Shown here: piece by piece, positions 2,449-62,760 of the stretch
Layout of the letters: every line of letters starts with the position of its first letter
Position numbering within the stretch: position 1 is the first letter of the stretch
Origin: Diplolepis rosae
Taxonomy: Eukaryota; Arthropoda; Insecta; Hymenoptera; Diplolepididae
Reading direction: 5' to 3'
Assembly (NCBI GenBank): GCA_030998225.1
Contig: JAPYXD010000686.1
Span: 1,488,001 to 1,552,000 of the forward strand
Length of the DNA: 64,000 nt
The notes under the pieces: generated by a model
What the model saw: the letters and a program-made list of their open reading frames with translations, nothing else
The model's database searches: none
What the model was told of the DNA's origin: nothing
Position numbers and translations under genes: made by a program

Positions 2449-2700
2449 TGTCACGTCCCGCGACTCTACCGTTACAAGTAACGAGCGGATCAAGAAAATA
2501 ATAAAAGGATCAAGATAGCATTACAGCGAGTGTGATTCTATCGACGCAGGTTATAGACAAATCTATACATCAATAGGATGATCAATACGAAATAACCATG
2601 TGTCGTTATAATACCCACACATGATAACAAATCGACTGAGCCAGAGAGAAAGTGAATGATGCCCTACAGTACATTAATCAACCTTTCATTAATTCACTTA
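2449..2700 (+). repeat. LTR start (3' end not resolved)
   Basis: LTR begins TGTCACGTCCCG immediately after the polypurine tract. The same start occurs on the minus strand at 46646 (TGTCACGTCCTG) and, with one change, at 47709 (TATCACGTCCCG). No matching second LTR or target duplication was found, so the end given is arbitrary. Confidence 0.5.
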
Positions 2701-17675: not shown

Positions 17676-18140
17676 ATGCGACTTCGTTGCACTAATAGCC
17701 AACAAGTATCGTTACGCGACGCGTTAAATTTAGTACCCTCGTTTGCCGGAAGTAACGTTCCATTATCACATTCCATTGAAGGGTGTTATGAGGCAAAGGC
17801 AATGCTGCCAACACCCGCAGCTCAAGAAAATTTAGCACCGTTATTGAGAAGAAAATTAGCAGAAGAAGGAAGAAAATGTATCTTTGGGCCAAATTATAAT
17901 AATATAGAGAAATTAATTGAAAAACGCAAATGAGTATATACCCCTGCAAAAAGTGTATCAATCACAAGCAGAATGAGGGAGTACCCATTTAAATGTGGGA
18001 AAAAGCAAACGTGCTTTCCTATGCAGATAGAATAAAGGGATTTGCCTACAAAATCGAAGATGCTCATAGACTTAACAGTAATGGAAAATTAGATAATACC
18101 TTCAAACAGAAGCTTTGAAGACACGTTATTCAATGCTTTA
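17676..18140 (+). pseudogene. Ty3/gypsy gag fragment (dsRBD-bearing copy)
   Basis: The 85-codon frame carries a gag signature (LVPSFAGSNVPLSHSIEGCY, PLLRRKLAEEGRKCIFGPNY) shared with the gag at 20.5-20.9 kb. After frameshifts gag continues (MWEKANVLSYADRIKGFAYK, EDAHRLNSNGKLDN), closely matching the minus-strand gag at 52.1-52.45 kb. The zinc knuckle is not seen. Confidence 0.8.
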
Positions 18141-18189
18141 TTTGCGGCCTGCGTTATGATTAAAGTGTAGAGAAATAAAAAATAAGCTA

Positions 18190-18460: not shown

Positions 18461-18479
18461 AATCAAGAAATTTAAAAAA

Positions 18480-18748
18480 TTAAGTGATGATGATTTATCT
18501 AACAAAATTCTGAATAGCTTCTTGAAAACCGACAGTTTGTCCGACAATCCATGCAAATTTTTTAACATAACCTTTTTCAAACCGGAAACATCAGTACCTT
18601 TCCTTAACCGCCATATTGTAACGACGAACCTTGATGAATTAAAATGTTCTGTTTGCGAGGAGCAGATTTTTTAAAATGTTTTAGAGCAGACCAGTCGTTT
18701 CATTTCACTGGATATCTCTTGGAGTTAACAAACGTGGAAAACGAATAA
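18480..18748 (+). pseudogene. Unrecognised segment upstream of the dsRBD exon
   Basis: Partly open frame with LSDDDLSNKILNSFLKTDSL and a CXXC pair (LKCSVCEEQIF), then stops. It ends at a good GT splice donor. It may be a first exon or leader of the accessory gene; no family recognised. Confidence 0.35.
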
Positions 18749-18850: not shown

Positions 18851-19175
18851 ATGAGGACAATGGCAACGCAATAAAAAGATTTTTAAAGGGTAGCGCTGTA
18901 TGAATACTCAATGAAATGAGCATTGAGTACGATTTTGCAGTGCTAACATAGACGGTAAAATCGTTCGGAATGCAACAGGAGCTTCCGTCGTTTTTTGACA
19001 ACTTGCGAAATTTTATGAAGATAATGTAACTTACGCTTGTATTGGGGAAACGGCATCCCGAAAGAAAGTAGAAAAGCAGAACGCAGCAGCTAAAATCTTG
19101 GAAACACTTTCCAAAAAATACCTATTTTCAGAAGAAGTATCAGAAAAATGCTTAGTCACAGAAAATTTTTTTTAA
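18851..19175 (+). pseudogene. dsRNA-binding domain protein, decayed copy
   Basis: Homologous to the open dsRBD frame at 41727-42032. The N part reads DEDNGNAIKRFLKGSAV, a stop, then ILNEMSIEYDF. After a frameshifted middle the C-terminal helix follows: GETASRKKVEKQNAAAKILE and then KKYLFSEEVS. The lysine-rich start of helix 2 (RKKVEK) is kept, as in true dsRBDs. Stops and frameshifts make it non-functional. Its place after gag and linker of a gypsy copy links the domain to that element. Confidence 0.7.
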
Positions 19176-19856
19176 AAATAAGTGATATAAACTGTAAGAG
19201 CTTTACAAAAATGGACCAATTTATAGGAAAGATGTTATGTACTATAGCATGTTATTTATGATACTAATTTACAGATATGAAATTTCTCAATCACATATAA
19301 AAATTATTGATGTATTTAGAAATAGTAACAAAAATGAATCACTTTCGACCTTATACTAATGTCAAGTTCATACTATTACTAAAAATGATATGACAAGAAT
19401 TTATAACAAAATGTTTTGATATTGGAATAATATAATTGTTTCATGATATCCAACAAATATGCGCCCGTACATTTGATTGTTCGTCTAGTTCGTCACTTGC
19501 ATTTTTCTTCGAAATAATCACCGGTCTCGCGACAATAGTACAGTGCGATTCCTTCAATGTAAAATCCGAGAATCTCTTAGTTTGTGATCGTAAAATTAGC
19601 CCGCGACAATTTAAAATCGAATTTCGGAAGTCGTAAAAGTCATCAAGATGTCAAGTTATCACGAACAACCAACCAGAAAATCAAGATACATAAATATTGC
19701 GCAGCCAAAATATTCTCAATTTTTTTTATTTAAAGAAATTGTTCTTGAAAATTTATCATAAAAACAAATTGAATAGGCAATTGAAAATATTTCGTTTTAA
19801 ATATTGAATAGAATATTCAAAAATTTACAAATATTCAGTCATGTTTTTAATTTTCA
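19176..19856. other. Unassigned sequence between gypsy copies
   Basis: AT-rich with a less AT-rich patch (19436-19640). Could contain LTR sequence of one of the flanking elements; no polypurine tract or LTR terminus identified. No gene recognised. Confidence 0.35.
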
Positions 19857-25720: not shown

Positions 25721-26512
25721 GTCAAAAGTATTAAAGAAGATAAAAATAAAACAAATATTTCTTGACCTGAAAATAAAGATGATTCAAAAAATTCTTTGAA
25801 TGATATAAAGGAAAACAATATAGAAGCAAATTTTGAGAAGAAATCCAAATCTACAAGTCGTACAAAATCTAGTTCAAAAAAATTTCAAAGTTCAAAAAGT
25901 TCAAAAAAATCCACAAACCCAACAAAATCTTCTGATCCTCTCTATGCTCCACAAATATGTATCAATTACACAAATTCTAATACAGTAAGGACTTGCAATC
26001 AAGCAAAAAAACAGAATAAAAAAATTAATAATCAACCAAGATATAGAGATCTTACAGACTCAAATGGAGAAAAAGACGAAAAAAGCGGTGATGAACTTTC
26101 TAAAAGGGAACAGAAAAGAATGATTATTGAAAATATAACCATATCAGTACCAGTTCCTGAAAGAAAAAGAGGTCGACCAAGAAAAAGTACATTAAAAACT
26201 TTGGACAAAAATGAAAATAAACCCCAGAAAAAGAAACAGAAGAAAGATGAAAATGAGAATCTTAACGAAGATAAGAAGATAATCGATTCAGACTATGAAT
26301 TTATCAAAAACCCATTAATAAATGAGAAAACAGATTCAGATTCTTCTTCCGAAGATTCTGATATTTTAGTGGACGACAATACCCTCTTAGAAAATTCTGG
26401 AGAAGAAAATCAAAGAAACTTTATAGACGATGTATATTCCCAATCAGGAAATAGTACAAACGGCCTAGAAAACCGACCACCACCAGAACCGCCCCCTGTT
26501 AAAAGGGACTGA
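25721..26512 (+). CDS. Gypsy pol linker: Lys/Ser-rich region with AT-hook and Pro-rich end
   Basis: An uninterrupted 238-codon frame (25796-26512) between RNase H and integrase. It is low-complexity and charged, with an AT-hook (KRGRPRK) about half way, a polyacidic stretch and a terminal RPPPEPPPVKR motif. It is downstream of RNase H and continues into NIIECRDQFTMRKD, which matches the gypsy copy at 50.69-50.89 kb, so it belongs to pol and is not a separate gene. An AT-hook could help chromatin binding of the integration complex (inference). Confidence 0.7.
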
Positions 26513-40989: not shown

Positions 40990-41232
40990 AAATAATTTTG
41001 TGAATTTACAGTCTTAAGTACGTAATCAATTATCTTTACCAAGGTATCACAGTCTTCTTAAGTACTCCTGGTTTAAAGGTGGTTACGTTGCAGAAATCTT
41101 TATGTCTTCTTTATCTTCTATTGGAACTTTCGCTTTTTATAGAACTTTGAAAGGTCAACTATGACGAGCTACAGGCTATGACCAGTCACATGTTATTATA
41201 AGTTGCATTTTGTGACTGTAATGTTACGATCC
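40990..41232 (-). repeat. LTR (3' copy) downstream of the dsRBD ORF, partial
   Basis: On the minus strand, following TTTCGATCGCGGATCG (shared with 2402-2416), the sequence begins GTAACATTACAGTCAC and contains a TATA box, TTCTATAAAAAGCGAAAGTT. The same promoter segment occurs near 42774-42800 (CCTACAAAAAGCGAAAGTTC). Interpreted as an LTR; outer end not resolved. Confidence 0.5.
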
Positions 41233-41726: not shown

Positions 41727-42032
41727 TTAGTAGTTAGAAATTATTTCTAGAATTTTTCCAGCGACATTTTGTTTAGTTTCCTTTTTGTTACTTGCGGATG
41801 TACCTATACGGACATACTCGCATTTGTCTTTCATTATACTACATTCTGCCCTAAATAGGGGTGGTTCAGCATTTTCGTCTAAGCATTCTATCTCGTATGC
41901 TGCTTTGCGAAAATTATATTCAATACTTATCTCGATAAGTATTTGAACAGCACTACCCTTGAGGAAATTTCTCTGTTGGAAAGTCATTTCTCTTACTTTT
42001 TCCTTGATTGAATCTAAAATTGATTTCTTCAT
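41727..42032 (-). CDS. dsRNA-binding domain protein of a retroelement
   Basis: Open frame of 101 codons, the best-preserved of three dsRBD copies. Residues 25-100 form one dsRBD: helix 1 GSAVQILIEISIEYNF, strands AAYEIECLDE, PPLFRAECSI, CEYVRIGTSA, and helix 2 NKKETKQNVAGKILEII, whose Lys-Lys-x-x-Lys start is the canonical dsRNA contact. It would bind dsRNA in the cytoplasm or nucleus; a single small dsRBD is a common design for silencing suppressors (inference). It lies between two LTR-like sequences with no gag or pol, so this copy has lost the rest of the element. Confidence 0.7.
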   Translation of the reverse strand: MKKSILDSIKEKVREMTFQQRNFLKGSAVQILIEISIEYNFRKAAYEIECLDENAEPPLFRAECSIMKDKCEYVRIGTSASNKKETKQNVAGKILEIISNY

Positions 42033-42114
42033 AAAAGGGCATTGTGGTTTTTTAATACTACTGTTGCGTCACAAACTTAAGACTTCTCTTCTTTAAAGAT
42101 CTGCTTCTTTTATG

Positions 42115-42900
42115 TAAGGATCGGAAGGATCCTCTCTGAGGGATGAGGAATAATCAGTAAATAAGAATGGTTAAGCATATAAAATATATTTATTAACATA
42201 AAAATCGTCTTAAGTAAGTACAATGGAAAAATGAAAATGCATGTATAAAATTTGAAGTATTTAGTATTTAATAATTAAAAGTATTGTACCTTGTATTGGC
42301 CCTTAATTTAAACTTCTCAGAGTCAATCTCGTGTTACTATGTGTTGTTCAGAGAAGCCCTTCAGCAAAAAGAGAAAAAAACTTTCAACTTTGGATTTTGT
42401 GTAAATTATTGAATTTTTTTCCATCCACTTGAAAGATTGTAATAAGTATCACTGATGAGGGCTCCGATCAGAGCCGAAACGTTTGATTAAATTTGACTTA
42501 ATCATTTTATGGACCCTAAAGCCAATTTTCCAACAACATACCATTCTATTTAGTATTTAACCTGAATTGGAAATAAGAGATGAATTTTAATCGGATGATA
42601 AATTCGTGGTCCAGTAGGTTGGGATGATTGATTCTCTGATCCCAGGTTCTAGAAAAGATTTCCTAATGCGATTCCCCTTCAATTTTTACCGTCGTTGAAC
42701 TTGGTGTCGAATTAGAACTGGACCAATTGGCGGTGAATAATCTGATGAGACTGGACTGACTGGACTGACTTATATTGGAACTTTCGCTTTTTGTAGGCCT
42801 TTAAAATTTCAACTATGGCGGAAATAAATGAGTAGGTGCACCACCTTTTCCATATTTGGTATCGAGGTGCTACGTTACAATTGAGTAAATACTAACTTTT
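42115..42900 (-). repeat. LTR-like sequence upstream of the dsRBD ORF
   Basis: The minus strand begins near 42884 with TGTAACGTAGCACCTC, has the promoter segment CAAAAAGCGAAAGTTCCAAT, an AATAAA, and ends near 42115 (TTCCGATCCTTACA). The ending resembles the sequence near 42900 (TTTCGATCCTAACT). Probably the 5' LTR of the dsRBD-bearing copy. The hammerhead-like motif lies inside it. Confidence 0.4.
42452..42480 (+). ncRNA. Hammerhead-like ribozyme core motif
   Basis: CTGATGA (42452-42458), stem GGCTC/GAGCC (42460-42464 with 42471-42475) and GAAAC (42476-42480) match the invariant hammerhead core CUGAUGA...GAAA. One extra G precedes the stem, and I could not find a convincing stem III with GUC cleavage site, so activity is uncertain. 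A related motif with a compensatory stem change is at 29744. Confidence 0.35.
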
Positions 42901-43590
42901 ATCAAAGGTTCCTCGTTTTAAGTTAGGATCGAAACATCCACCCTTAGGGATGAGGATAAGTCAATGAAAGACACAACGATTATCAAAATAATACAAGTTG
43001 AATTTATTTAATTGATTAAAGGTCACTGAACACAGTTGTTAACACAATTCATAGCTAAATGTAGGCACAGGCTTGTTTGGTACGTAAGTTAGAGAGAGAT
43101 TGAAAATAAAGAGAGAGATAGAAGTTCGGTACCGTTATCATTCGTTAAGTTGCGTTGATGGTTAATCAACACGTCGGTGAGTACGTAGTACGCAGGATCC
43201 CCACAGGTGTAGACAAGGTGTGTCAAAGAGACGGATATAGACCGCACAGATATATTCCGTAAATGCGGTAATCCTTATTTATGACGCTGTTTTAAAGATC
43301 ATTACAAAGATCTATACAAGTCCACGATGAATTTTATTACTCCCGAAATGGGATTTTAAATTGTCCCGATCGAATTTTATTAATCTCAAACTAAGAGATT
43401 TTCAGAGTTAAATTGGAAATACCGTGCTGCATTAACTGTTCGCTCTTGTTGTGGGCTTCTTTTATATTTTTCCATACAAATTGATGGTCAGCGTAAATCG
43501 TGACGTAGTCATATCTTCTTAGAGGAGAAGGAGTCCTATACTGCTCCCTACTTTCCCTACTACTTATTCCCCTTTATCAATTTTCTAAAT
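42901..43590 (-). repeat. LTR-like sequence downstream of the env/Cys-rich ORFs
   Basis: The minus strand shows a purine run (GATAAAGGGGAATAAG) near 43570, then a region with TATATCTGTGCGG, an AATAAATTC signal near 43010 and an end near 42900 (GTTTCGATCCTAACT). This fits polypurine tract plus LTR of the element containing the env fragment. AGT...ACT termini, as in errantiviruses, are possible but not proven. Confidence 0.4.
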
Positions 43591-43596
43591 AGATTT

Positions 43597-43986
43597 CTAC
43601 TCAATCCAGCCTGTGTGTTGAAGTTGCATTTTATTTTTCAAGAAATGCTCAATACAACGTTTACAGTCCGTTGCCCTACAGCGTGGCGTTATTAATGCTT
43701 CTCTACAAACGTTACAATTCATTTTAACGCATTGTATTTTACAAACTGAGTTCCATGAGGTACAGAATTCATATTTATTTTGTTCTATTATTGGTAATTT
43801 TTCGAAACAAAATTGGCAAAATTTCTTTGCTGTTTCCTGACTGTAATAAATCAATAAGGTCGACGCTTCTAGGTCGAAATAAAAACTATTTATTAAGTGT
43901 CCATATGTAATTGTATAATCCTGTGGACATACACCGTCCACAGGTCCTGAGTGGAACACGATCTGTGCTGCCGCTGTCGGAATCAT
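43597..43986 (-). CDS. Cys-rich ORF downstream of env, function unknown
   Basis: 129 codons. N-terminal half unremarkable; the C-terminal half has paired cysteines: FCQFCFEKLP, then CKIQCVKMNCNVCREALITP and CRATDCKRC. This could bind one or two zinc ions. It lies between the env fragment and the LTR on the same strand, i.e. in the accessory position where other copies carry dsRBD. No homologous family recognised; it may be a decayed or novel accessory gene. Confidence 0.4.
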   Translation of the reverse strand: MIPTAAAQIVFHSGPVDGVCPQDYTITYGHLINSFYFDLEASTLLIYYSQETAKKFCQFCFEKLPIIEQNKYEFCTSWNSVCKIQCVKMNCNVCREALITPRCRATDCKRCIEHFLKNKMQLQHTGWIE

Positions 43987-44400
43987 TCTATAAATTTAAA
44001 AAAGAAAATAATCTAATTTTAATCAACTATACCCTTGATTATATAATTTTTATACTTTATCCATTTAAATCGTAAAAAAGTACCAAAATTTGATTCTAAC
44101 AGAAGTTTTCCATTATTAGAAGGTATTCTATTTCTCCGTTAGAAAAACAATTTTTATATTACAATACTGTTACAAAAACTGTTCTTCTAAGGGTACATAC
44201 CCAGTGATCATGCTGTGGCTTTACAATATAGAAAGAGAGGGATGGATTGTATCTGTACCAGGAAAATTTGAAACGATCGAAAATATGGGTTTCTTTTAGT
44301 TTAGACACTTTTGAAAAGAAGTAGTTAAAATTTGAATGATAGGTCACTTATTTTCGAAGCGGTTTTTTTGATAGGCTAAGAGGAGTTTTTTGTACTTGTT

Positions 44401-45135
44401 TTATTTTTTTCGTATTTTTATTAGATTTTTTGAAATTTTTTGAATTTTAATCAGTATTATTAATAGAATAAGTATTATAAGGAAAGTAACTATAGTATGT
44501 ATAGTAACTATAGTATTTATTGAATATCGCATATTCAGTGAGTAAGAAAACATGACTTTCAAAAGTCGATATAAGCATGTCATCTTTTTTATGAAAAAGA
44601 TGCAACACATTTTTTGTCAAGTGAGGCTGTGTGATCGACATATTATATAAGAAGGGAGAAATTATTTCAAGAGAAGTGGTCGATTTACTAAGTAGAATTG
44701 AGTTATCAATTATTTTTGTATAATTTTTAGTATTGTAGTATGGAATTGATGAGTCCAAATTACAGTCAGATTCTATTTGTGAAATTCCTATTCCTTGAAG
44801 AGTGATTAGCTTTTTGGAATTTTTGGAGCAAGATAAAAAGAATGCTTTTGGAAGAAAAGTTGAATAAAGCCATCCGCGGTGTAACAGCACTGGTGTTAAA
44901 AAAGGACATCCATTCAAATTTATAAATGTTTCACATTTATACGGTTGGGATTTTATAAACATTGATGTTACGCAAATAGTATTATTTTGAGTACTGTATA
45001 TGGAATGAGAAGGGTGACAAAAACTTTGAAGTCCATTTTGGTGCCATGAAGCGAGGAATTTTTCATTTGTTGTGAAGTAAGATTCGTTATTTGGAGAAAT
45101 CGCGACATAAGAAATTTGAGATTTTATGAATATAG
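44401..45135 (-). pseudogene. env fragment (errantivirus/F-protein-like), C-terminal half
   Basis: Minus-strand frames show ectodomain sequence with paired cysteines (KCETFINLNGCPFLTPVLL, FFLSCSKNSKKLITLQGIGI, ESDCNLDSS) and, after a frameshift near 44530, a membrane anchor of about 20 Ile/Leu residues (FLIILILLIILIKIQ) and a basic tail. The LxGxGI...C pattern is typical of insect retroviral Env related to baculovirus F proteins. The N-terminal half is missing. Membrane fusion glycoprotein remnant. Confidence 0.65.
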
Positions 45136-45710
45136 GTGTAATAATGTAATATAATCAGTATTGAAGTCAAAATATATTGGTGTTGAATGTGTTTTAAACA
45201 CTGATCTCTATAATACACTGGATGCACAATCAATGCAAAGTCGCGTGCCCAATTGAAGGCTGAGCCGCCATATTTACTCAGGTTGATTACAAAGAATGTT
45301 GCGGTAAATTCAAATATAGTAAAAAGGGAAAAGTGTAAATATTAAAGAAACAATATGAAATCCATGCTTTGTTACCGGTATTAGTATTGATAGTATACAT
45401 TATTAAACTAATGAAATAAAATTTATTAAATAGTACTAAAATATAACTCGGTAATATTTATTATTATGGTATATAATGTTGTATATATTTAAATAGGCAT
45501 ATGTATTTATTTCTTAACTATAATTAAATATAAATTTATTATAAATCTATCAAATATAGATTCTAGAATTCAACAAGTAAACGTACCTTGGAGTAGTGTA
45601 AAAATTATCTCACGTTCTGAACGTGAACTATTAATAATAGTCACATATAATAACTATTTTTAGTATAAATTAATTCGCGTTTCATAATTCAACCCTTATC
45701 TACCTGTACA
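45136..45710. other. AT-rich sequence, no gene seen
   Basis: Between the env fragment and the next LTR-like block. No protein homology recognised. Confidence 0.35.
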
Positions 45711-47866: not shown

Positions 47867-48240
47867 TTATTCTACAAACTTGTTATTACGCTTTGGACCA
47901 TGAAAATTTACTGGTTTATGACCTCTTTGATAACAACGCTCGCATGTACCCGTCCATTTATATAGTTTAATTTTTTCGGAGTCGTTTTCTACAGGTTTTT
48001 TAAATTTATTTTCGGGCTCTCTTTGTTCACTAAATAAATAGTCCTTGTACAGGAACTCTAATAGCTTTCGTGCTGAATTATGCTTGGCTTCTCTTTTGGT
48101 TTTTGATTTCCTTATAGTACATATAGCTATAAGTATCGGTATATTACTAGGAAATTTACACATTGATTAATTTGAACATTTAAGCCCTTAAAATCGTGTT
48201 CCAAGCTTACCTTTTATATCATCAAAACGTCAGCTTAAGT
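47867..48240 (-). pseudogene. dsRNA-binding domain, third copy, with CCH-type C terminus
   Basis: Third dsRBD relative. Upstream of the 98-codon frame, DFKGLNVQINQ aligns with FLKGSAVQILIE of the 41.7-kb copy; the middle of the domain is deleted or scrambled. Helix 2 is kept: KSKTKREAKHNSARKLLEFL, followed by KDYLFSEQ, which matches KKYLFSEE of the 19.1-kb copy. The C terminus adds CERCYQRGHK, resembling a zinc knuckle. It lies just before the hairpin/polypurine tract, in the 3' accessory position of the gypsy element. Confidence 0.6.
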
Positions 48241-49274
48241 CATTAATGACATTCATTGTTTTCTATATTCAAAGTCCGAAATAGATACCTTATATATTAT
48301 TTTAGAAGACCTTCTGCTTTAGAATATCATTGATAAGATTAATTTCACGTAAAAACTTGATATATACATTCAATGCACATCTAAATAAGTGTTTTTCTTT
48401 GCATAAAATTCATTTGCTTCCATAGCAGAAGGGAATATATTATCTTAAGAAAATTTTTAGGAACATTTTCGTTATCGATAATTATCATAGTACACGAGAA
48501 AATTTTCTTGATGTGAGTAAATTATGTGCATGAAAAATATCCATAAATCTCCAAGAAAGTTCAAAATATTTGTATTTTTAAGGGAGAAAGATAATCTTTT
48601 ATTTTATTTGTTGTTTCCTTTTTTTATTAGTAATTCTTTATCAATAGAATTTCACTTTTTAATGAATATTTTAGTTTCCTTCGATTAGTGTTCTTTGGAA
48701 ACTAATTACTTTGCGAGTATCCTTCAAAAACAGTGAATAACTATCTTCTCCCAAAAATAAAATTCAATTTTACAAAGGTTGGAAAAAAATATTGGTTGAA
48801 TGATGTGATTTCTTTTTTTTATATGATAATCATAAAAATTGACTTGTGAAAAATTTGGGACAAATAATGGACTTTAATTATGAAATGAATAAAATGTCTT
48901 TCGGACAAAATGCTTCCTGAATGACTGTTTCCTAGAGAAGAGAACAAAGACTATTAGTATTTGACCTGAAAGAAGAGTTATTTGTTAGATGGGAAAAAGG
49001 TTTACAGATCAAACCTCGTTTATGAGAAAACGTTGAAAAATTTTCTGATAATTGTAGTTTTTTTTCGTTGATTTCTTTGAACAACTGTTTAAAATATTAG
49101 TTGGATTTTTACATATTTTGTATAAAGGTATCATTTTTGGACGTAAAAGTTCTTTTTGTGTTTCCAAATCTCCATAATTGCTTAACAAAGCTCATAAAGT
49201 TCTTGTATTGATTTTATTTGTTTAAATGATGCTTCATTTTCTGTAGCTATTTTTGCTTGGTTTTCCATTCTACA
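48241..49274. other. AT-rich 1-kb gap between dsRBD and CARD-like ORFs
   Basis: No gene recognised. It would lie inside the same gypsy copy and may contain decayed accessory or intronic sequence. Confidence 0.4.
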
Positions 49275-49770
49275 TTATGATATGAAAATTATTCTTTTGT
49301 CAATGTTAAAACCTTTTTGAGATAGAAATTCTGGTTCTTCCAGCTCATATTTAATTGTTGAATCCTTCAGAATTCTTATATGATTAAGATTATCCAAAGT
49401 TTTGGCTTTATATATATCTTCTTGTGATTTTGATTCTTTTTGTCTAGTTAAATTCATAGAGGCTGTAGTCCTTGGTATAGATTGAGTTCCCACGTTAATA
49501 CTTTCCTTGAAGAGTATAAGAAAAAATGCAATTTTGTCGTAAGCTGCATAGTAAATCCTAATATGCATAGGGCCATTTTGTTTGAATGGTTAAAATGATG
49601 TCTTTAATTGTTTCTGGATTTTTGATGTTTTGAGACCAATTTGGTACATTATAGTCGTCGTAGTTAAATATTCCATTCATAAATAAATATGGCCATAATG
49701 CCTTTATATCAACTTGACGAACGATTAACTCACACAATAAGTCAATGTGCTTACGATGTTTTTGTTCCAT
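49275..49770 (-). pseudogene. CARD-like ORF directly downstream of gypsy pol
   Basis: Two adjacent frames (49558-49770 and 49275-49568). The first, from its Met, reads like a caspase-recruitment domain: MEQKHRKHIDLLCELIV, VDIKALWPYLFMNGIFNYDD, NPETIKDIILTIQTKWPYAY. Spacing and hydrophobic pattern fit the six-helix CARD of initiator caspases such as insect Dronc (from memory, unverified). About 20 bases with a stop separate it from the last helix (YDKIAFFLILFKES). Charged sequence follows; no caspase catalytic domain. It starts about 35 bases after the pol stop on the same strand. A CARD alone could act as decoy or adaptor in apoptosome signalling (inference). Alternative: a captured host caspase exon. 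Confidence 0.5.
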
Positions 49771-49799
49771 TGCGATCTATAATCATTTTTATTTAGTTT

Positions 49800-50886
49800 T
49801 AATTCTTTCTTCTTTGATTGGTTGCTGATGGGGTTATATATGAAAGTCTAAGTCTATTAATATTGACGATTTTAGGTTTATTTTTAACTGAAATTTTTAT
49901 GTTTCCTTTGCCTAATATTTGAAGTACTTCGTATGGTCCTGAATATTGATTTTCGAATTTCTTTAGTTCTCCGCCTTCTAGTAAAAATACATTATCTCCG
50001 ATTTTAAAGTTTTGGGGATTAATTTTTTTGGCATAATACTCTTTTGATTTTTCTTTAGCTGCTATTAATTTTGTCTTGCTATTCGACGCATTTCATGTAA
50101 TTTTGTAATCAATTTTGTCAAGTACATATCGTAAGTTTCTATTTTTTCATGTTCTGTTAGAGGATCGTCAGATGGTAAACGTGCTAATATTCCAAAAACT
50201 AATTCATAAGGTGCGCATTTCGGTCCTTCATGAACACTTGTGTTATACGAAAACATTGCTAATTCAATCCAGTCATCCCATTCTGTATTATTTTCGATAA
50301 ATTGTTTAAGATATTCTTTAAGAACGTGATGGGATCTTACCAAGGATCCATATGATTTAGGGTGATAAGCAGTAGTCTTAAACTGACGTATTCGAAATCG
50401 TTTTGCCATTTTTCTGATTAAATTGCTTAGAAAATCTGCTCCTTGGTCTGTTAAAACCGCTTTTGGTGATCCATATATGCAGATACATTTTTTTAACAAA
50501 AGCGTCTGCTATTGTTGCAGCTTGATGATTTGGGAGTGTGATTGCTAAAGAGTATTTAGTAAAATTATCTTGAATTGTAAGTATATACTGATTTTGTGAT
50601 GAAGTTGTTGGTAACTTTCCAACAATATCCATTGAAATTTTCTCAAATGCTGTTCCTGGGGTGTCAGTAATTATCATAGGGTTTTTTATTTTAACCCTAA
50701 CAATTTTTTTAAGTGGACGATTCCTTTTTGTAAATTTCTAAAATTAGGTAATTTTCCACATTTTTCTAAAATTTTAGAGCCTATATCGCGAGGTTCTCCT
50801 TTATTGCTTACAAAATACGCATAATTATCTTTTCTCATCGTTAATTGGTCTCGGCATTCAATTATATTTTTCTGTGTCCTCGGCAA
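49800..50886 (-). pseudogene. Gypsy pol: integrase of the CARD/dsRBD copy
   Basis: Pre-integrase segment (ECRDQLTMRKDNYAYFVSNK, 50686-50886), then the core start (FEKISMDIVGKLP), a frameshift near 50500, then VLTDQGADFLSNLIRKM with the second catalytic Asp and WDDWIELAMFSYNTSVHEG. The C-terminal domain (NFKIGDNVFLLEGGELKKFE) ends near 49805. Closely related to the plus-strand copy at 1-857. Confidence 0.85.
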
Positions 50887-51807
50887 TCCGGATCAGAATT
50901 TTCAGAATTCCCTATTTCTAGTATATCCGGTTGTTCTTACACCATTTTTATCAATTATATGACCTAAATATCCTATTTCGGGTCGTAAAATTTGGCATTT
51001 GTCTGGTTGTAAATAAGGATTCGCTTTCCTAAGTCTTTCTACTAAATTGTTGAATTTAATTTCGTGCTATTCTTGATTATCTGCATACATAACTATGTCA
51101 TCAAGATATACAAAAAGTTCCGTTCCAATTAAACCAGTTAATGTTAAATCCATTAATCTTTGAAACGTGGCGGGTGCAGTTTTCAAACCGAAAGTTATTC
51201 TATCGAATTCGCAATGACCGAGAGGTGTAGAAAATGCGGTTCTATGCGAGTCTTTTGGGTCTATTTTTATATGGTGGAAGACGGTAGCTAAATCAAACAC
51301 AGAAAAATATTTTGCTGATCCTAGAGAATCAAGTACATCGTTTATATTAGGTAGATGATACGAATCGCCAATTGTTTTTTCATTTAATTTACGAAAATCA
51401 AGAACCATTCTCCTTTGTATTTTTCCTTGAGAATCAGGTTTTCTAGGAACTATCCATACTGGCCTGTTATAAGGTACTTGTGATGGCTTGATTATTTTAT
51501 TTTTGAATAATTCATCGACTTGTCTTGTAATTTCTTGCTTGTGAACTGGAGGAAATCTATATTGTCTTGAAAAAATTGGAGCGTCATCTACAGTACGAAT
51601 TGAGTGTTGTAATACAATAGTAGCTTCAAATGGTTCTCCTGGGATTTGGAACATGTCTGCGTTATCTTTAATTAATTTTTCTACATGTTCATATTTATCT
51701 GGATTGAAATGGTCTAGTCGAAGAAGTTTTTTAAAACATTCTACTCTGTCTTCGTCTGCTCCATTATAAATTTTGCATGAGTTAATTAGGGGATTTTCAG
51801 TTCTCAA
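50887..51807 (-). pseudogene. Gypsy pol: reverse transcriptase of the CARD/dsRBD copy
   Basis: A 246-codon frame has RT from the entry segment (IFSRQYRFPPVHKQEITRQV) through VWIVPRKPDSQGKIQRRMVL to the intact catalytic FVYLDDIVMYAD. One stop later it continues (FNNLVERLRKANPYLQPDKC, GYLGHIIDKNGVR). The RT thumb end, RNase H and AT-hook linker are deleted: the next sequence is RTQKNIIECRDQ of the pre-integrase segment. Confidence 0.9.
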
Positions 51808-51851
51808 TAGTATATTACGTGCCTAGGCGCATGAGGGTTATTGCTTGATGA

Positions 51852-51910
51852 GCGACAATGCTCGCAGGAGATAGAAGCCGAGGCGCGATCAGTCCTGCGA
51901 GCATTGTCGC
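51852..51910. other. Perfect 18-bp inverted repeat (hairpin)
   Basis: GCGACAATGCTCGCAGGA at 51852-51869 and its exact complement at 51893-51910, loop of 23. It lies between gag and RT of the gypsy copy where protease is expected. Could be the remains of a small DNA element or a structured RNA. Confidence 0.7.
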
Positions 51911-52089
51911 GAGTCTCGTAATTTCCCGAATTGTGTGCATTGGCACGTATTCTATTTTATTTGACTTCGGTACGGATACGAGTAATTATTCATGCGTATT
52001 GCAGTTCAATTTTTACATTGTATTTCTCCGTAACGGAATACACAACATTCACCTGCTACATTAAACTGAGTAACTTTATTATTTTTATT

Positions 52090-52458
52090 ATTAGTTGGTT
52101 CGTCACTTTTTGAATATTCCATATTTTTATTTCTTCGTAGTACAGAATTTGCAGCCAATCTTCGTTCAATATCTATAGTATAATTAATTAATTCCTTGAA
52201 TGTGTCCTTTCTTCTATACGAATTTCTAACTCAGCACGCAAATCGCGTATAAAGCATTGAATTAAATCTCCTTCTAAATTTTATTTAAAAGCATTATCTA
52301 CCCGACCGCCATTATTAAGTCTGTGAGCGTCTTCTATTTTATCAGCAATTTCTTTAATTCCAGCAGCATATGAAAGGGCATTTTCTCTTTCCCACATAAA
52401 TGTATTACCTAATTCTCCCTGCAACTGGTATACGCTTTTCGCAGAGGCATATTTTTAT
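52090..52458 (-). pseudogene. Gypsy gag fragment of the CARD/dsRBD copy
   Basis: Minus strand: SAKSVYQLQGELGNTFMWER, ENALSYAAGIKEIADKIEDA, GDLIQCFIRDLRAELEIRIE, LINYTIDIERRLAANSVLRR. Homologous to the gags at 17.7 and 20.5 kb. Its 5' part is cut off by the neighbouring element's LTR at 52459; the zinc knuckle region is damaged. Confidence 0.8.
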
Positions 52459-52654: not shown

Positions 52655-54442
52655 CTAAATTTTGATACGTCTATTTTTAGGTGGTTCAGTTAGCAAAGGC
52701 TGAACGCTCGCGTTGTAAGTGATCACATGCGTGGGTTTGTCTATTTTAGTTTTAACGCAAAATAAGCATATTCTTTTCGGGATACAATTTTTTAACAATT
52801 CAAATAATCCGAACCTGTAACTAATGTACAGTGTAACTAATCCAAGTGACGCATACCCTAAATAGCTTAGGTATTCCATGATTGTTTCTGTCGTTGTCTT
52901 GATTCGCCTATGCTGAACTATAGAGTTTAGCATGTTTTTCGTATCGTCTAAACTCAACCTGGCTTGCTGTAATTCGACGTTATTAATTATTTTGGGTAAT
53001 TGAATGAGCCTATTTACGAGACTTGCTAAATCGCTCGAAGAATATTGAAGGTCGTACGTGATGTTAAAATACTCAAAAGTGTTATACTTAATTGTGTTTC
53101 CTAGATATAGTAAGTCGTAATTGTTGTAAAGTTTACCATTGTTTCCTAATAAGATTGCTGGTTCAGAAATCTTTTCTTGTTTGATGTCATTTCCGCAAGC
53201 TAAATCTAGGTCTAATTCCTTTAAAAGGATAACGCTGTAGCCGTTTGTTATGGGTATGAACATTTCTCTGTGAAGAAAGAAGGACGATTTCTTACATTTA
53301 TTATTGACGTATCGCTTGAATAGGGTTGCTTCGCAGGTTTCTCTGTCTAATAATTTTATACTAGGTTGGTTTCTGGAACAAATTTTGTACTCAGAAATCT
53401 CCTTACAATTACTTACTGTCTCTTTGTCTGTTGGTACATAGGAGTCTCTGTATTTTATAACATAGTCATGGTCTGGTATTATAGAAAAGTAAACATTCTG
53501 TACAGGATGGGGGATGGGAATTATTCTCTGGATTTGTCCATCTTCTTTCTCTATAATCGGGATACTGAAAACGTAGGTAAACAATCCTTTATTGATTGCT
53601 ACGGACAGTTGACTAATGTCGATGATGTGCTGATAGTTGCTTTCTTCGGCGTAGAAGTGATATTTCGTTCTTTGTCTTTCTTCGAACTCTCGGATAGTTT
53701 CCTTCAGGATCATTGGTGTGAGCAATTGTGAGTGTACTACTCCGTGTTTGCCGTCATCGATAGAATCAATTGCCGTGTCGATATCTTCGTTATTTTCGTC
53801 TATCATAATTACGGCTATTACCAACTTGCTGTTAACAAAGCTGTCTCTGCATATAGCGTTCACTCCTATGCTCAGATTTCCAGCTAGTTGTCGTTCGCTA
53901 TTTAGATTGTTTAGTAGCTCCTTGTGATTGACTGATGAGGAATCCAAGATGAGTTTAAACATTTTTGTGTGGTTTGAGAACGCGGTATCTATATTCTTAT
54001 TGTCACTGTAAAATTTATCAAATGCAGCATTTATTTGACACAGATCATTTTCGTTGAGGGTTCCAAATAATGTTTTAGAAATATCTCCGACGAAGTTGGT
54101 TAATGCTCTTCGTTGCCTAGTTTGTTGTTTTCCTAAGAGCTTCATGAGGATGGTATTTTTGTATCTTAATCCATTGTATCAATTCCTAACTAGATGTACT
54201 TCATACATAGGTGGACATTCGCTATTGCATGCTGTTTCAGCTGATCTAATAGTGGTGTCGATAGAAGTAAGTCGTTGGTCATTTGCAGTGAAATTTATCC
54301 CAATAACAAGTTTCCACGTTTCGTGGTAAAGGTGAACCTTTGATTGTTCTTCTATATAAACATTCCCTTTAAGAGACATAAGAGTATAATTCGCCTGACT
54401 AATGATAGCTAGTGCTAGCAGCATTATCGTCTGCATCAGCAT
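52655..54442 (-). pseudogene. env: env of an errantivirus-like Ty3/gypsy element, nearly complete
   Basis: Insect endogenous retrovirus envelope gene in two abutting frames. The first (54179-54442) starts with a hydrophobic signal peptide (MQTIMLLALAIISQ). A single in-frame TGA near 54176 separates it from a 496-codon frame. There a furin-type site (RQRR) is followed by a hydrophobic segment as in fusion peptides, then a long ectodomain, a membrane anchor (about residues 448-465) and a cytoplasmic tail. Related in layout to baculovirus F-type proteins. An acceptor-like TATTTTTCAG directly precedes the start codon, consistent with spliced env mRNA. Function would be membrane fusion; this copy is interrupted. 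Confidence 0.85.
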
Positions 54443-54461
54443 CTGAAAAATACGACATACA

Positions 54462-55758
54462 TTAGTCTATGTGTATTCGAATGATGTTATCTTTATTTCT
54501 AATTCTTAGATTGTTTTTGTTGATGTAATCTATGACTTTAAAAGGTCCTTTCCAGGCAGTTTCTAATTTATTTTGCTTGGTGTTGTTGAGTGTTTTGACA
54601 AGATCTCCTGCTTTATATATTGGATGTTTTCTAGTAATATTTTCGACGAGTCTTCTTTTTCTCTTTTCCATTTCTACCTGGATTCTCTCTCGGGTTTTGG
54701 ATATGATCTCTTCGTGTTTCTTCTTCCATTTCCTTATCAGGTCCTGATAAGTTAGGTTAGGTGAGGTGTTGACCGATGACGGTATATTGGGTGTTATTCC
54801 GAATGTTAATTCATAGGGAGAATGTCCAGTCGTTTGATTGGTAGTGGTGTTGATGACGAAATTAATGTATTTTAAGTTTTTGTCCCATTGTTTATTGTTT
54901 TCGGCAATACTAGTCTTGATCAGGTTTACTAGTGTAGAGTGCATTCTTCCGATGTTCCCGTTTGATTGCGGGTGGAATGCAGTTGTTTTAATATGCCGAA
55001 TGTTTAATGCGTTTTCAAATTGTGTCATTAATTCCGATAAGAAGTTTGATCCTTGGTCAGAAAGTATGGTTTTAGGTGCTTCGAAAGTATAAATGTAGTG
55101 ATCGATTAAGGCTTCCATTATTGAATTCGTTGATTCATTCTGCAACGGTACGGGAACTGTATATTTTGTTACTCTATCTTGCATACTGAGTATGTTACGA
55201 TTTCCTTTTTGAGTTTCGGGGAGTGGTTATATGCTCTTCGCTTGATTCTTTATGCGCTTTTTTTTTGTAGTTGGCAAATTGGGCAAAACTGCACTTTTTT
55301 TAAATTTCATTGTCCATTCCGAGCCATAAGCCGATGGTCTTAGACTTTTCTAGCGTTTTCTTTTCTCCAAGATGAGTGGAGTGTGCTTCTTTGAATATAG
55401 CTTTCTTTTCTTCTTTTGTCAATTCTCTGGTAGGCGTGAAACATAAGTGGAAATTTAGGTGAGGGTAATAATTTGAGAGAAATTCCATCATTTCCTGAAG
55501 TATTTCCATTTGCAGTGGGGTAAATAGTGGTTCTCCAAAAATAAGCCTTATGATGGTTAATTTTTCGCTATTAATTTCCTCTATAATCCAGCTTAATTTT
55601 ATGAGCCAATCTTCTTCGTCATAGTCAGGCATTTCCTCCTTTTCTATTTCCTTCCATAACTTTCTTATCGCGTTAGGCTTTGTCTTAACTTTACCGAAGG
55701 TGGGTTTTAGTCTCCAATTTATAAATTCCGTATGCATGTCAAGTTTTTCGGTTGTCAT
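54462..55758 (-). pseudogene. Gypsy integrase of the env-bearing element
   Basis: Frame 54462-55184 gives the catalytic core with TILSDQGSNFLSELM (second Asp) and a C-terminal domain (PIYKAGDLVKTLNN, WKGPFKVIDYINKNN). Frame 55300-55758 upstream gives the RNase H-integrase spacer (TREL...KKAIFKEAHSTHLGEKKTL, the histidines of the zinc finger). A frameshift between them disrupts the zinc finger cysteines. The env start lies 20 bases downstream. Confidence 0.88.
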
Positions 55759-56395
55759 GTCTTCTGTAGATTCGTTCTCTGTTTCCTCCGAAGGTTCTCT
55801 CGTCCTTCTTGGTGGTAAATTGATCTTTTCCTCTCCTTCTAGTACCCTATCTTCTGTTATAACTGGGGTACTAAAAAATTTCGATTTTCTTTGATTGAGT
55901 TTCTAATTCCGCAGTTCCATCTTCCTCATCGGATATTCCTGCTTCCCACATTGCTTGTTTTGAAATATCAGATGTTATAGGGAAAAGTCGGGATAAACAG
56001 TCTGCAACTTTGTTTTCTTTTCCTTTTACGTGTTCGATGTCGTAATCGTATTCCTCCATTCTCAATCGCCATTGTGGCAATCTTGAGCTAGTATCCTTGA
56101 CGTTATGGAACCAGACCAAAGCTCTGTGATCCGTTCGGATTTTGAATTTGTTACCAAGGAGATACTGTCTCAAACGCTTCATAGCCCATACTATAGCTAA
56201 AAGCTCTTTTTCTGAGGTACTGTATCTTTCTTCAGCTTTGTTGAGAGTCCTTGAGATGAATAAGCATGGGTGTCCATTTTGACTAAAAACTGCTCCTACG
56301 CCTTGATTTGAGGCGTCAGTTGTTAAGGTATATTGTTCTTTAAAATTCGGAAACCTTAACACTGGTGCTGATATTAATGCATTTTTCAAGTCATA
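55759..56395 (-). CDS. Gypsy RNase H domain of the env-bearing element
   Basis: Open 172-codon frame. TLTTDASNQGVGAVFSQNGH has the first catalytic Asp; STSEKELLAIVWAMKRLRQY the Glu; FKIRTDHRALVWFHN the second Asp; KGENKVADCLSRLF-type end (VKGKENKVADCLSRL). All expected residues are present, so this domain is intact although the element is not. Confidence 0.88.
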
Positions 56396-56852
56396 GAATT
56401 CTTTTTCGCAGTTTAATGTCTAGTCGAATATTGTATCCTTTTGTGTTAATTTAGTGACTGGTCTTGCAATGCTTGACAAGTTTTTTATAAATTTTCTATA
56501 GTATCATGCGAGTCTTAAAAAGGATTGTACGTCCATTACTGTTTTTAATTGTTTAAAGTTCTGTACTGCACTTAATTTCTCTGGGTTGGGTCTTACTCCA
56601 TCCTACATGTCCTAAATATTCCAATTCTGGTTTAAGGTATTTGCATTTGCTGGGTTCTAGACGTATCCTAGGGTTTTTATTCTTTCCAAAACCGCTTCTA
56701 AATTTTCGTAATGTTTTTGAATAGTTTCGCCGAAAATGTTCGTGCAGGATGACTTTCTTTTCACCACATTTCGGTCTCCCTGACATACGTCTGTGCCTCC
56801 GTTATTGCATTGCGTTTAAGTAGTAGTATCTGTGTACCCATCTCTTTCTTAC
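56396..56852 (-). pseudogene. Gypsy gag-RT fusion caused by internal deletion
   Basis: From the MULE edge: GTQILLLKRNAITEAQTYVR (gag), then directly FGETIQKHYENLEAVLERIK, IRLEPSKCKYLKPELEYLGH (RT thumb) across frameshifts. The gag C terminus, protease and RT fingers/palm are deleted. It continues into RNase H. Confidence 0.75.
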
Positions 56853-60493: not shown

Positions 60494-62760
60494 CTAATTA
60501 TTTTTATGTAGAAGTGGAATAATCACGAATGTATTATACTTCTGTCTAATTCGGAGGCACTTTCTTTTGATCTCTTTAATTTCAATTTTTTTAGTGTTCG
60601 AAAGTGATTCTTGAGAGACGACTGAAATCCCAAGTTTCTTGGAATTGCAAGGCTTCGTAAAAAATGGTTCGCTTTTAGTAAAATACTTAACATCTAAAAA
60701 AGTTTTGTTTTTGTCTTTATATATTTTAAATACAAGTACTACCGAACTGTCACGTAGCATACAACAGTTGTTAAATCTTTGAATCGAGACAAGATATCCA
60801 ACAAACTGTATGGACTCAATTTCTCTGATTTCCACTTGGTTTCCAAGACTCTTATTTTTGTATCGCAAAATAGGATATTTCATAGGATAGGAAGTTTTAA
60901 CTGGCAATTTATTTTTTTATGAAGTTACGTTAACTGCTTGCTCTAATGGTCTGTTATTAGTTTTAATATGGTTTTTAGGTTTTGCAGCTGATTTTCAAAT
61001 TTAAAGGCGCTAAAATCGTCTAAGGGGCCGAAATTTTCAACGCATTCCGGTAAATGTAATGCTACATGAACGTTGTAAGTTATAAATTGAGCACTATACA
61101 AAGATGCGTAGTTTTCATTGAACCACTGTATAAGGTTTTTTGCATAACTTCTTAATTCTGAATTTGAATGCAATTCCTCATCAGCCAAAATTCGAATGGC
61201 CACACTCATAGAAAGAAGATGTGTATAATAATTATTTTTAAGTCCATCCTTTAGGACAACCATACCAGTGTAGAGCAGAAACTGACGGCATTCAGTGGCC
61301 TTCCACCTCTCAATCTCTTTCAAAGATCTCGGATTACGAGCAAATTCGCTTGTTATAAATTCTTTCATATTTATTAAATCGTCAGAAAATGCCTCAATTG
61401 TACATGTTGGCAATCTTGCATTCGCAGGACCTTTAGTCCATAACCAAATTAATCGCCTAACTACAACGAGGCACACGCAGTGCATATAATAAATAGGTAT
61501 CTGTGCTATCATGTCTTCAATTATTTCTTCTAAACAGAAATAAGTAGTGTGATGCTCTGGTTGTGACTTATGTCGAAAAGAATGATCTGTTCTTGGAGCG
61601 GATCGGGTTTCCGGGAAAGTCATTCGGTGCATAATAAATTCACCTTCTTGAATGCATTTAGGACAAGCGTAGTATCCTGTATGAGATTTAGTTCCCGATG
61701 CAAAAGCTCGAGCTGGTGCATCACAAATTATAGAATTAATCGATACTTGTACTAATTTTCCTTCAATATCTATACCGATTCGAAGACAGTCGGAATAATC
61801 TAATACAAAAGGCCTCAGGAACTCATTAACATCATTTCGTTTAGTAAAACCATGATACATACCAACGATTATCGGCTCTGTGTAAAAATCGGTAACAATA
61901 GAAATCATCATAGGCCAAAACTGACTGCCGGAGCTCTTAGCCAATGGAACTTCATCAATAAACACATTTATTTTTAATATATCAGGAATATTTTTGAACT
62001 ATTTAGTTCCTAAACGTTTTATGCAGGATTGAAGACCAAAGTGAAAATACTGCCCTCCACTGTTTGCTTGAAGTTTCAGTGACATGTTCTTCGGAGTTTT
62101 TAGTAAAGTTCTTTTGTCTTTTGGTAACTCTATGTGCCCATGCTTCCTCAATACACGAAGTAATTTATTAGTCACTTTTTGTGTCAAATTTCCTTGTAAA
62201 ACAATATCTCGTATATCACTTTGTAAATCAGTACCACTGTTACAATTTTCCTCACTTTCATAAATACTATTTACCAAATCATCATCACTAGAGTCGTCAC
62301 TAAGAACAACATCGCTATCAAATTCGTTAAATGTATTTTCTTGTATTATTTGATTATTCTGAATCGGAACTTCTACAATTAAGTCTTGTGCAATGTACTC
62401 ACGCAAATCTTGATCTATTATTTGTTCTGGCGGCCTACTGCCAATAGTGCACTGTACATCGGTACATTCCACCGTCTGTAAATTACTTTCCAATGCGCTG
62501 CTTGTCTGATTGTGAGTGGTATTAGATGAACCAGAAAAGCAAGGCGCAAAATTCGTATTTTCAAATATCTCGTCTACTTCTCAAGTTTCAGTATGAAAAT
62601 TTTTAATTTCTCGTTCCATCAAGCGCCACTTATGCCTTTTAGAAAAAAATTTAAATCCTACGGCATGATTATGATAAAATTGAATGTACTCGCACAATAA
62701 AATACTGGCTTGGCAAAATGAGTCTTCTTCAGGTATACGCAGCACTTTTATTCATTCCAT
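60494..62760 (-). pseudogene. Transposase_21/CACTA-like transposase gene, lightly damaged
   Basis: Three frames in order. N-terminal part (62493-61999, acidic, with LLRVLRKHGHIELPKDKRTL and SGGQYFHFGL) with an upstream extension to about 62760; central catalytic part (61965-60943) with FIDEVPLAKSSGSQFWPMMI, INSIICDAPARAFASGTKSH, a CPKC zinc pair, PIYYMHCVCLVVVRRLIWLW, SEFARNPRSLKEIERWKATE and YNVHVALHLPECVENFGPLD; C-terminal part (60907-60494). One stop joins parts 1 and 2 in frame, a frameshift lies between 2 and 3, and one stop lies in the upstream extension. Relatives usually have PLDYMH where this reads PIYYMH, a likely catalytic loss. Superfamily label from memory. Confidence 0.7.

What the first reader, a model, noticed from the sequence alone, without database searches (positions are those of the whole stretch)
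41727..42032. A dsRNA-binding-domain protein travels with a Ty3/gypsy lineage (three loci)
Seen: an open dsRBD frame at 41727-42032 has homologues at 18851-19175 and 47867-48240. All keep the lysine-rich helix 2 (NKKETK, RKKVEK, KTKREAK), and two keep the extension YLFSE. One follows gypsy gag and linker, one lies between gypsy pol and a polypurine tract, one lies between LTR-like sequences. Known: stand-alone dsRBDs are used by viruses to sequester dsRNA from Dicer. Inference: an LTR retrotransposon may carry its own silencing suppressor. I know of no such gene as a standard part of insect Ty3/gypsy elements.
Basis: partly seen in the sequence, partly recalled or inferred. Interest (0 to 1): 0.92.

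Follow-up and report, generated by a model that had tools for sequence, protein, structure and literature searches.

The report
Retroelement carrying dsRNA-binding accessory genes
The small double-stranded-RNA-binding gene in this window is a leftover of a large, recently active, virus-like jumping element that carries three such genes and two unrelated envelope genes, perhaps to shield its RNA from the host's silencing machinery.

Summary
The window ORF (minus strand) is a relic of a multicopy gene: 150 copies scored of 900 candidates in the 758-Mb host genome, 133 without a stop. Its model has the dsRBD order of helices and strands. Of 20 copies fetched, 19 have the element's LTR downstream and 19 have sister genes upstream. 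Two copies are 17.2-17.7 kb elements with one mismatch per LTR pair and 4-bp target duplications. Gene order: gag, PR, RT/RNase H, integrase, chuvirus-type glycoprotein, dsRBD-A (two domains), dsRBD-B, baculovirus-F-type envelope, cys1, cys2, dsRBD-C with CCHC knuckle. Where measurable between lineages I and II, accessory genes show purifying selection (dN/dS 0.14-0.28). A second gypsy lineage has one dsRBD-CCHC gene between pol and env. My ten paper searches listed no dsRBD gene in an LTR element. Silencing suppression is the likeliest role but is inferred; RNA export or packaging remains open. The window copy itself is a decayed internal-deletion remnant.

The parts
41727..42032 (-). dsRBD-C ORF of the finding (101 codons; homologous start at 41987); relic lacking the CCHC tail
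42056..42229 (-). 3' end of a lineage III LTR directly 5' of the ORF
   Evidence: 78.3% over 175 bp
41115..41198 (-). internal piece of a lineage III LTR 3' of the ORF
   Evidence: 91.7% over 84 bp
42628..42817 (-). two further lineage III LTR fragments
42868..43618 (-). lineage I LTR in two pieces (42868-43424, 43443-43618)
   Evidence: 82.6% and 91.0%
43600..43986 (-). cys1 ORF (86% identical to the lineage I copy)
44528..45145 (-). env2 (baculovirus-F-type envelope) remnant
   Evidence: the window frame itself has no Pfam hit, family known from relatives
17694..18154 (+). gag remnant of the same element type
18552..18745 (+). cys2 remnant
18886..19253 (+). decayed dsRBD-C copy (stops and frame change)
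19476..19644 (+). lineage I LTR fragment
47870..48166 (-). partial dsRBD-CCHC copy
49958..50877 (-). integrase remnant of the related gypsy element
50935..51822 (-). reverse transcriptase of the related gypsy element
   Evidence: 84.6% to the lineage I RT
52048..52451 (-). gag remnant
2451..2672 (+). lineage III LTR fragment

Best explanation
Shown: the gene is multicopy, lies in a fixed place between LTRs and is under purifying selection between lineages; the element also has dsRBD-A (two domains), dsRBD-B, a chuvirus-type and a baculovirus-F-type glycoprotein, and two small cysteine-rich genes. Inferred: the accessory genes are made from spliced mRNAs; dsRBD-C binds dsRNA formed by sense and antisense element transcripts through its KKxAK helix and keeps it from Dicer, blunting the siRNA response; dsRBD-B, whose equivalent helix lacks these lysines, more likely binds a protein such as a Dicer or a sister dsRBD. 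I put element membership at about 0.97, dsRNA binding by dsRBD-C at about 0.8, and silencing suppression as the main role at about 0.5.
For: Own-genome search: 150 rows scored of 900 candidates, 133 without a stop in the matched stretch (17 rows with stops counted from its table). 19 of 20 fetched loci have the LTR downstream and 19 of 20 a sister gene upstream, every locus one or the other. Linkage: of 74 dsRBD-A rows that I picked out of the 149 rows by their profile span, 27 have a dsRBD-C row within 8 kb downstream, all 27 on the same strand, 20 of them at 4.04-4.07 kb, 0 upstream; chance about 0.0008 per row. LTR pairs of 850 and 762 bp with one mismatch each, a third at 97.9%; 4-bp target duplications in three copies. 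Domains. Selection between lineages I and II: C 0.14 (bootstrap of one pair 0.08-0.25), B 0.14, A 0.28, env2 0.16, cys1 0.19. Fold; closest solved folds Loquacious, TARBP2, ADAR1, R2D2. Helix-2 lysines: K95 in 27, K96 in 24, K99 in 27 of 29 rows. In IIV-6 340R, helix-2 lysine mutants lose suppressor activity relative to wild type (PMC4231766, section read; that these are the same positions is my reading, not aligned here). A YAG within 22 nt upstream of 19 of 20 starts against 335 of 793 other ATGs. The host has two Dicer loci.
Against: No expression, splicing or binding data. The window copy is below the Pfam cut-off; its model is of moderate confidence (mean pLDDT 65.2) and no PDB match reached E 0.001 (best 2.7e-3). 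In 340R the dsRBD without its C-terminal part does not suppress RNAi, so the truncated window copy would be expected to be inactive. dsRBD-B is weak in lineage I (E 0.11; 0.0035) and passes the cut-off only in the lineage III frame. Within lineages dN/dS is often higher (C 0.11, 0.30, 0.51; cys1 up to 0.82), and cys2 and several deeper comparisons are saturated. Insects silence such elements mainly with piRNAs, whose precursors are single-stranded (recalled), which a dsRNA binder would not block. CCHC knuckles fit RNA packaging equally well. Another gypsy element in this window (52655-56419) has integrase abutting env, with no other frame of 90 codons or more listed between them, so gypsy elements do without the gene.
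Confidence: 0.55

Rival explanations
1. RNA-handling factor: one or more of the dsRBD-CCHC proteins binds structured element RNA and exports unspliced genomic RNA or packages it, as Rev does in complex retroviruses (recalled) and CERV does in Cer1.
For: The gene layout implies unspliced and spliced RNAs from one element, which creates a need for export (acceptor-like sites). CCHC knuckles are in 17 of 18 open dsRBD-C, 3 of 8 open dsRBD-B and 0 of 5 open dsRBD-A frames. Precedent: Cer1 CERV, made from a spliced mRNA, is required for genomic RNA export (PMC10309623, abstract read).
Against: The closest solved folds and sequences include Dicer partners, though a shared fold does not show function. 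Three separate dsRBD genes are more than one export factor needs.
Confidence: 0.3
2. Mimic of a Dicer partner: the proteins derive from, and compete with, Loquacious/R2D2/TARBP2-type proteins, one binding RNA (C) and one binding Dicer or partners (B), rather than simply coating dsRNA.
For: The lineage IV dsRBD is closest by sequence to TARBP2 (E 5e-10) and Loquacious (1.6e-6) among solved proteins. The dsRBD-C model is closest to Loqs-PD, Loqs dsRBD2 and TARBP2. dsRBD-B lacks the lysines (GPTSELAENRAA in lineages I and II; sequences).
Against: Profiles of dsRBD-A and dsRBD-C matched no solved Loqs or TARBP2 chain at E 0.01 (A none; C only two Staufen chains). ADAR1, Staufen and RNase III rank near the same scores.
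Confidence: 0.25
3. Passenger: a host gene piece captured once and copied along without function.
For: Many copies are decayed, including the three in the window, and within-lineage dN/dS is often 0.3-0.8.
Against: dN/dS 0.14 for C between lineages I and II at dS about 1, start sites in fixed position, and recurrence in a second gypsy lineage.
Confidence: 0.03
4. Evasion of a dsRNA-sensing or editing pathway other than RNAi, or a helper of reverse transcription.
For: dsRBDs occur in many enzymes and inhibitors; BFVD matches include poxvirus kinase inhibitors.
Against: No specific feature points to it.
Confidence: 0.1

Closest known systems
IIV-6 340R, dsRBD silencing suppressor of an insect DNA virus (PMC4231766: abstract and the section on the dsRBD read)
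   Same: Small stand-alone protein with one dsRBD plus a C-terminal extension needed for activity; lysines in helix 2.
   Different: 340R is in a large DNA virus and was tested; here the gene sits in an LTR element, its tail carries a CCHC knuckle, and there are two sister dsRBD genes. Function untested.
Retrotransposon-encoded helicase domains proposed as silencing suppressors (PMC6338049: passages read)
   Same: The idea that a retroelement carries its own suppressor: the paper reports a weak suppressing ability of transposon-encoded helicases in a plant test.
   Different: A helicase domain, not a dsRBD; the word dsRBD occurs 0 times in its main text.
Errantivirus-type insect endogenous retroviruses such as gypsy and ZAM (PMC12992720: passages read)
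   Same: Ty3/gypsy pol, baculovirus-F-type envelope, env from a spliced RNA.
   Different: 17-20 kb instead of the usual 7-8 kb (recalled); a second, chuvirus-type glycoprotein; dsRBD and cysteine-rich accessory genes.
Anakin, BEL/Pao elements with a chuvirus glycoprotein (PMC7642597: passages read)
   Same: Chuvirus-type glycoprotein captured by an LTR element.
   Different: Here pol is Ty3/gypsy. PMC10084718 (passages read) reports gypsy pieces beside such glycoproteins in Hymenoptera but no clear evidence of capture by gypsy.
Cer1 CERV, C. elegans LTR element (PMC10309623: abstract read)
   Same: LTR element with an extra gene made from a spliced RNA.
   Different: CERV exports genomic RNA; its abstract mentions no dsRBD.
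Bdelloid rotifer LTR elements with additional ORFs (PMC5408684: listing and a term search of its text only)
   Same: LTR elements with captured extra genes.
   Different: The terms dsRBD, dsRNA, dsrm and double-stranded RNA occur 0 times in its main text.

Membership tests
dsRBD family (Pfam dsrm PF00035) | profile score over the curated cut-off of 23 bits | tested here: met
   Met by relatives: C 31.1 and 27.8, A 49.4, 42.3 and 23.2, lineage III B 25.9, lineage IV 43.5. Not met by the window copy (17.3) or the 47867 fragment (13.2), nor by lineage I dsRBD-B (13.5; 18.3).
dsRBD family (Pfam dsrm PF00035) | alpha-beta-beta-beta-alpha fold | tested here: met
   H40-50 E57-64 E71-77 E86-91 H95-112, mean pLDDT 65.2
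dsRBD family (Pfam dsrm PF00035) | dsRNA binding | not testable with these tools
   only residue conservation: K95 27/29, K96 24/29, K99 27/29
Ty3/gypsy (Metaviridae) | protease-RT-RNase H-integrase order with gypsy-type domains | tested here: met
   L029; the protease match is weak and below its cut-off (18.4 of 28.2 bits)
Ty3/gypsy (Metaviridae) | LTRs TG..CA with 4-6 bp target duplications | tested here: met
   three copies, 4 bp each; the 3' LTR of copy 3 begins TA where the 5' LTR has TG
Ty3/gypsy (Metaviridae) | GPY/F motif after the integrase core | tested here: met
   'YTGPYEIL' read in L030 ORF 5395-6339; motif role stated in PMC12440569
Errantivirus-type insect endogenous retrovirus | baculovirus-F-type envelope gene | tested here: met
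   env2 PF12259: L009 3.3e-18, L016 4.6e-23, L019 8.2e-21, L013 3.3e-11; the related frames of L012 and L021 gave no hit, although L012 is 91% identical to L009
Errantivirus-type insect endogenous retrovirus | infectious, env from a spliced RNA | not testable with these tools
   acceptor-like sites only
Anakin | BEL/Pao polymerase | tested here: not met
   pol matches RT, RNase H and integrase models in gypsy order with GPY/F; no BEL/Pao family was listed for it
Viral suppressors of RNAi | suppression of Dicer or RISC activity | not testable with these tools
   fold and lysines only
Troyka | 5'-CG..CG-3' termini, 3-bp target duplications, no envelope | tested here: not met
   TG..CA, 4 bp, envelopes present

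The most novel reading that the evidence does not exclude
A lineage of complex insect retroviruses has evolved inside Ty3/gypsy: two unrelated fusion glycoproteins plus a three-protein dsRNA module made from alternatively spliced RNAs, in which dsRBD-C coats dsRNA and dsRBD-B acts on Dicer or its partners. It would be the invertebrate counterpart of the accessory-gene set of lentiviruses, aimed at RNA silencing instead of restriction factors.
Probability: 0.3. Interest if true: 0.95.

Novelty: new variant of a known kind. Interest (0 to 1): 0.85.

Why it matters
Animal hosts hold LTR elements down by RNA-based defence. A silencing suppressor carried by a retroelement has been suggested for helicase domains (PMC6338049, passages), but my searches listed no dsRBD gene in an LTR element. 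Here such genes are multicopy, conserved between lineages and present in two gypsy lineages, which makes the question directly testable. The element also holds a chuvirus-type glycoprotein inside a complete gypsy element beside an F-type envelope; PMC10084718 (passages) looked for such gypsy capture and reported no clear evidence.

Tried and rejected
Splicing from the long pol-dsRBD frame: the PF00035 search listed a dsRBD inside a 1798-codon frame. Comparing L035 with L036 shows a deletion with short shared bases and no GT..AG, so it is a deletion product and not a spliced copy.

cys1 structure: model useless (mean pLDDT 38.1), so no fold search was run on it. cys1 and cys2 have no Pfam family over its cut-off and no PHROG at E 0.1.

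Relatives in IMG/VR: none for dsRBD-C or dsRBD-A. Protein searches at E up to 1: 60, 34 and 18 relatives for C, A and cys1, all 'ena' entries without a name. Two of them read from env1 into dsRBD-A (P0097) and from dsRBD-A through the start of B into env2 (P0078), which supports the linkage from other sequence records.

Troyka and Anakin were considered and rejected (see membership). The PF16087 search of the host was a poor choice and says nothing here. The LTRs of lineage IV were not found in the stretches fetched. An RT tree with named gypsy clades could not be made; lineages were compared only with each other: RT identity I-II 97.8%, I-III 82.2%, I-IV 57.4%.

Literature: ten searches, judged by titles and abstract starts of the rows listed (often 12-20 of more); none listed a paper on a dsRBD gene in an LTR element. 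The library lacks most subscription journals and holds no Repbase. Of PMC12440569 (Troyka) I read parts 1-3 of 5; of PMC13172572 only passages.

Full report

Copy number and context. A six-frame search of the host found 900 candidates and scored 150, the window's own included; 17 of the 150 rows hold a stop, 133 do not, and open frames of 157, 162, 168 and 178 codons recur. I fetched 20 of these 150 loci, chosen by frame class and score before I saw their surroundings. In 19 of 20 the element's LTR lies downstream on the same strand, starting at most 1.9 kb away; in 19 of 20 at least one sister gene lies upstream; every locus has one or the other. Independently, of 74 dsRBD-A rows that I picked by profile span from the 149 rows, 27 have a dsRBD-C row within 8 kb downstream, 27 of 27 on the same strand and 0 upstream, 20 of them at 4.04-4.07 kb; chance is about 0.0008 per row. 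Both lists are capped at 150 rows, so this is a lower bound; the other 47 A rows had no C row in the capped list.

Anatomy. For three copies I read the flanking stretches piece by piece. LTR pairs: 850 bp with one mismatch (copy 1), 762 bp with one mismatch (copy 2), 863 aligned columns with 11 mismatches and 7 gaps (copy 3). Target duplications are GTAT, AAAT and ATAC; LTR ends are TG..CA, except that copy 3's 3' LTR begins TA; a GGGGGGAGG purine tract precedes the 3' LTR. From the locus coordinates the copies span 17,682 bp, 17,183 bp and about 19.5 kb. About 14-16 bases after the 5' LTR comes TGGTGCATCGGCCGGGA in copies 2 and 3, with differences in copy 1. It is complementary to a tRNA-Gly 3' end (recalled); a pattern of that tRNA end occurs 8 times in the genome against 0 for the reversed control.

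Genes, 5' to 3': gag with CCHC (21.3 bits); protease (weak, below cut-off); RT 2e-35 and RNase H 5.3e-39; a linker with an AT-hook; integrase H2C2 5.7e-21 and rve 5.7e-13; env1 = PF24664 Monjiviricetes_fusion 1.1e-236; dsRBD-A, two matched stretches, 7e-13; dsRBD-B, 1.5e-5 in lineage III but 0.11 and 0.0035 in lineage I; env2 = PF12259 Baculo_F, 3.3e-11 to 4.6e-23 in four frames of lineages I-III, while related frames of L012 and L021 were not listed; cys1 and cys2, no family; dsRBD-C with a C-terminal CCHC, 3.7e-7. The lineage III loci show no cys2 match at the threshold used. None of the three copies read at length has every gene open: copy 1's pol is split over frames and its dsRBD-B and env2 are shorter than in other copies; copies 2 and 3 have short env1 frames.

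Selection. Using only naturally open frames, dN/dS between lineages I and II is 0.14 for C (30 pairs, dN 0.144, dS 1.05; bootstrap of one pair 0.08-0.25), 0.14 for B, 0.28 for A, 0.16 for env2 and 0.19 for cys1. cys2 and two of the deeper C comparisons are saturated. Within lineages the ratios are mixed: C 0.11, 0.30 and 0.51; B 0.63 and 0.61; env2 0.66; cys1 0.26, 0.24 and 0.82, as expected if many young copies are already free of constraint. Choosing open frames biases towards intact copies, but would not by itself give a low ratio between lineages.

RNA-binding surface. In 29 aligned C relatives the helix-2 lysines are K95 27, K96 24 and K99 27; the CCHC motif is in 13 of these 29 (many are fragments) and in 17 of 18 open C frames from the fetched loci. 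In 340R the lysine mutants K86A and K89A lose activity relative to wild type, and the dsRBD alone is not sufficient (PMC4231766, section read). dsRBD-B has GPTSELAENRAA there in lineages I and II, so it may be a protein-binding domain; this is inference.

Expression. 19 of 20 accessory-gene starts (several copies of the same genes, so not independent) have a YAG within 22 nt upstream, against 335 of 793 other ATGs; 9 of 20 reach the top 5% of the background for pyrimidine content. env1, env2, cys1, C and the lineage IV gene each have a copy in that top 5%; cys2 does not, B just misses it, and one of the two dsRBD-A starts has no YAG at all. No RNA data were available.

Second lineage. L035, L036 and L038 show gag - PR - RT - integrase - dsRBD-CCHC (204 codons, dsrm 4.8e-11) - Baculo_F envelope (6.7e-28) (gag and protease read by eye). 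Frames of exactly 204 codons appear in 24 of the 149 rows; only L036 among them was read. Its RT is 57% identical to lineage I, its dsRBD gene matches dsRBD-C over 140 columns, knuckle included (34%, E 4.7e-15), and among solved proteins it is closest by sequence to TARBP2 (5e-10) and Loquacious (1.6e-6). So the dsRBD-CCHC gene is shared by two distinct envelope-bearing gypsy lineages.

The window. 41727 looks like an internal-deletion remnant: an LTR 3' end at 42056-42229, then dsRBD-C, then an LTR piece at 41115-41198, all on the minus strand, with lineage I LTR, cys1 and env2 pieces at 42868-45145. 17694-19644 is a decayed copy with gag, cys2, dsRBD-C and LTR pieces. 47870-52451 is a related element with gag, RT, integrase and a partial dsRBD-CCHC.

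Mechanism. The host has two Dicer loci. One is clearly Dcr-1-like (4.8e-39). The other is a divergent Dicer that matches Dcr-1 (1.5e-5) and Dicer-2 (3.2e-5) more weakly than vertebrate Dicers, so calling it Dicer-2 is inference, as is calling the host an insect. The most economical reading is that dsRBD-C binds dsRNA from element transcripts and hides it from Dicer. The export or packaging reading is not excluded, and with three dsRBD genes both may be true.

Novelty. Ten paper searches listed no dsRBD gene in an LTR element (titles and abstract starts). Extra genes in LTR elements, F-type envelopes in gypsy, chuvirus glycoproteins in BEL/Pao, suppressor-like helicases in retrotransposons (PMC6338049, passages) and dsRBD suppressors in viruses are each known; I did not find their union described. 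I therefore call it a new variant of a known kind.

Noticed in passing
L035:2-5035 (G000:C154:3967700-3977699): A copy of the second lineage in which a deletion with short shared bases fuses integrase in frame to the dsRBD gene, giving one very long open frame.
   Followed up: yes
L029:4465-6534, L031:1-3894; also window 25766-26512: pol of these elements has a long linker with AT-hook repeats (GRPRK) between RNase H and integrase (AT_hook 17.8 bits over cut-off 17.4; 15.7 bits in the window frame). Unusual for gypsy pol as I recall it; it might direct integration.
   Followed up: no
L009:3855-4268 and 4375-4752: Two small cysteine-rich genes (cys1, cys2) with no known family; cys1 dN/dS is 0.19 between lineages I and II.
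   Followed up: partly
L038:2806-3195 (minus): A 130-codon frame upstream of gag in the second lineage, no Pfam match.
   Followed up: no
window 6988-7311 and 7550-7873: The same 107-codon frame occurs on opposite strands with identical translation, which implies an inverted repeat.
   Followed up: no
window 60943-62580 (minus): Two long frames that look by eye like a DNA transposon's transposase region; not identified.
   Followed up: no
window 4673-6255 (minus): Frames that look by eye like non-LTR retrotransposon reverse transcriptase; similar DNA lies in L009:8294-10000.
   Followed up: no
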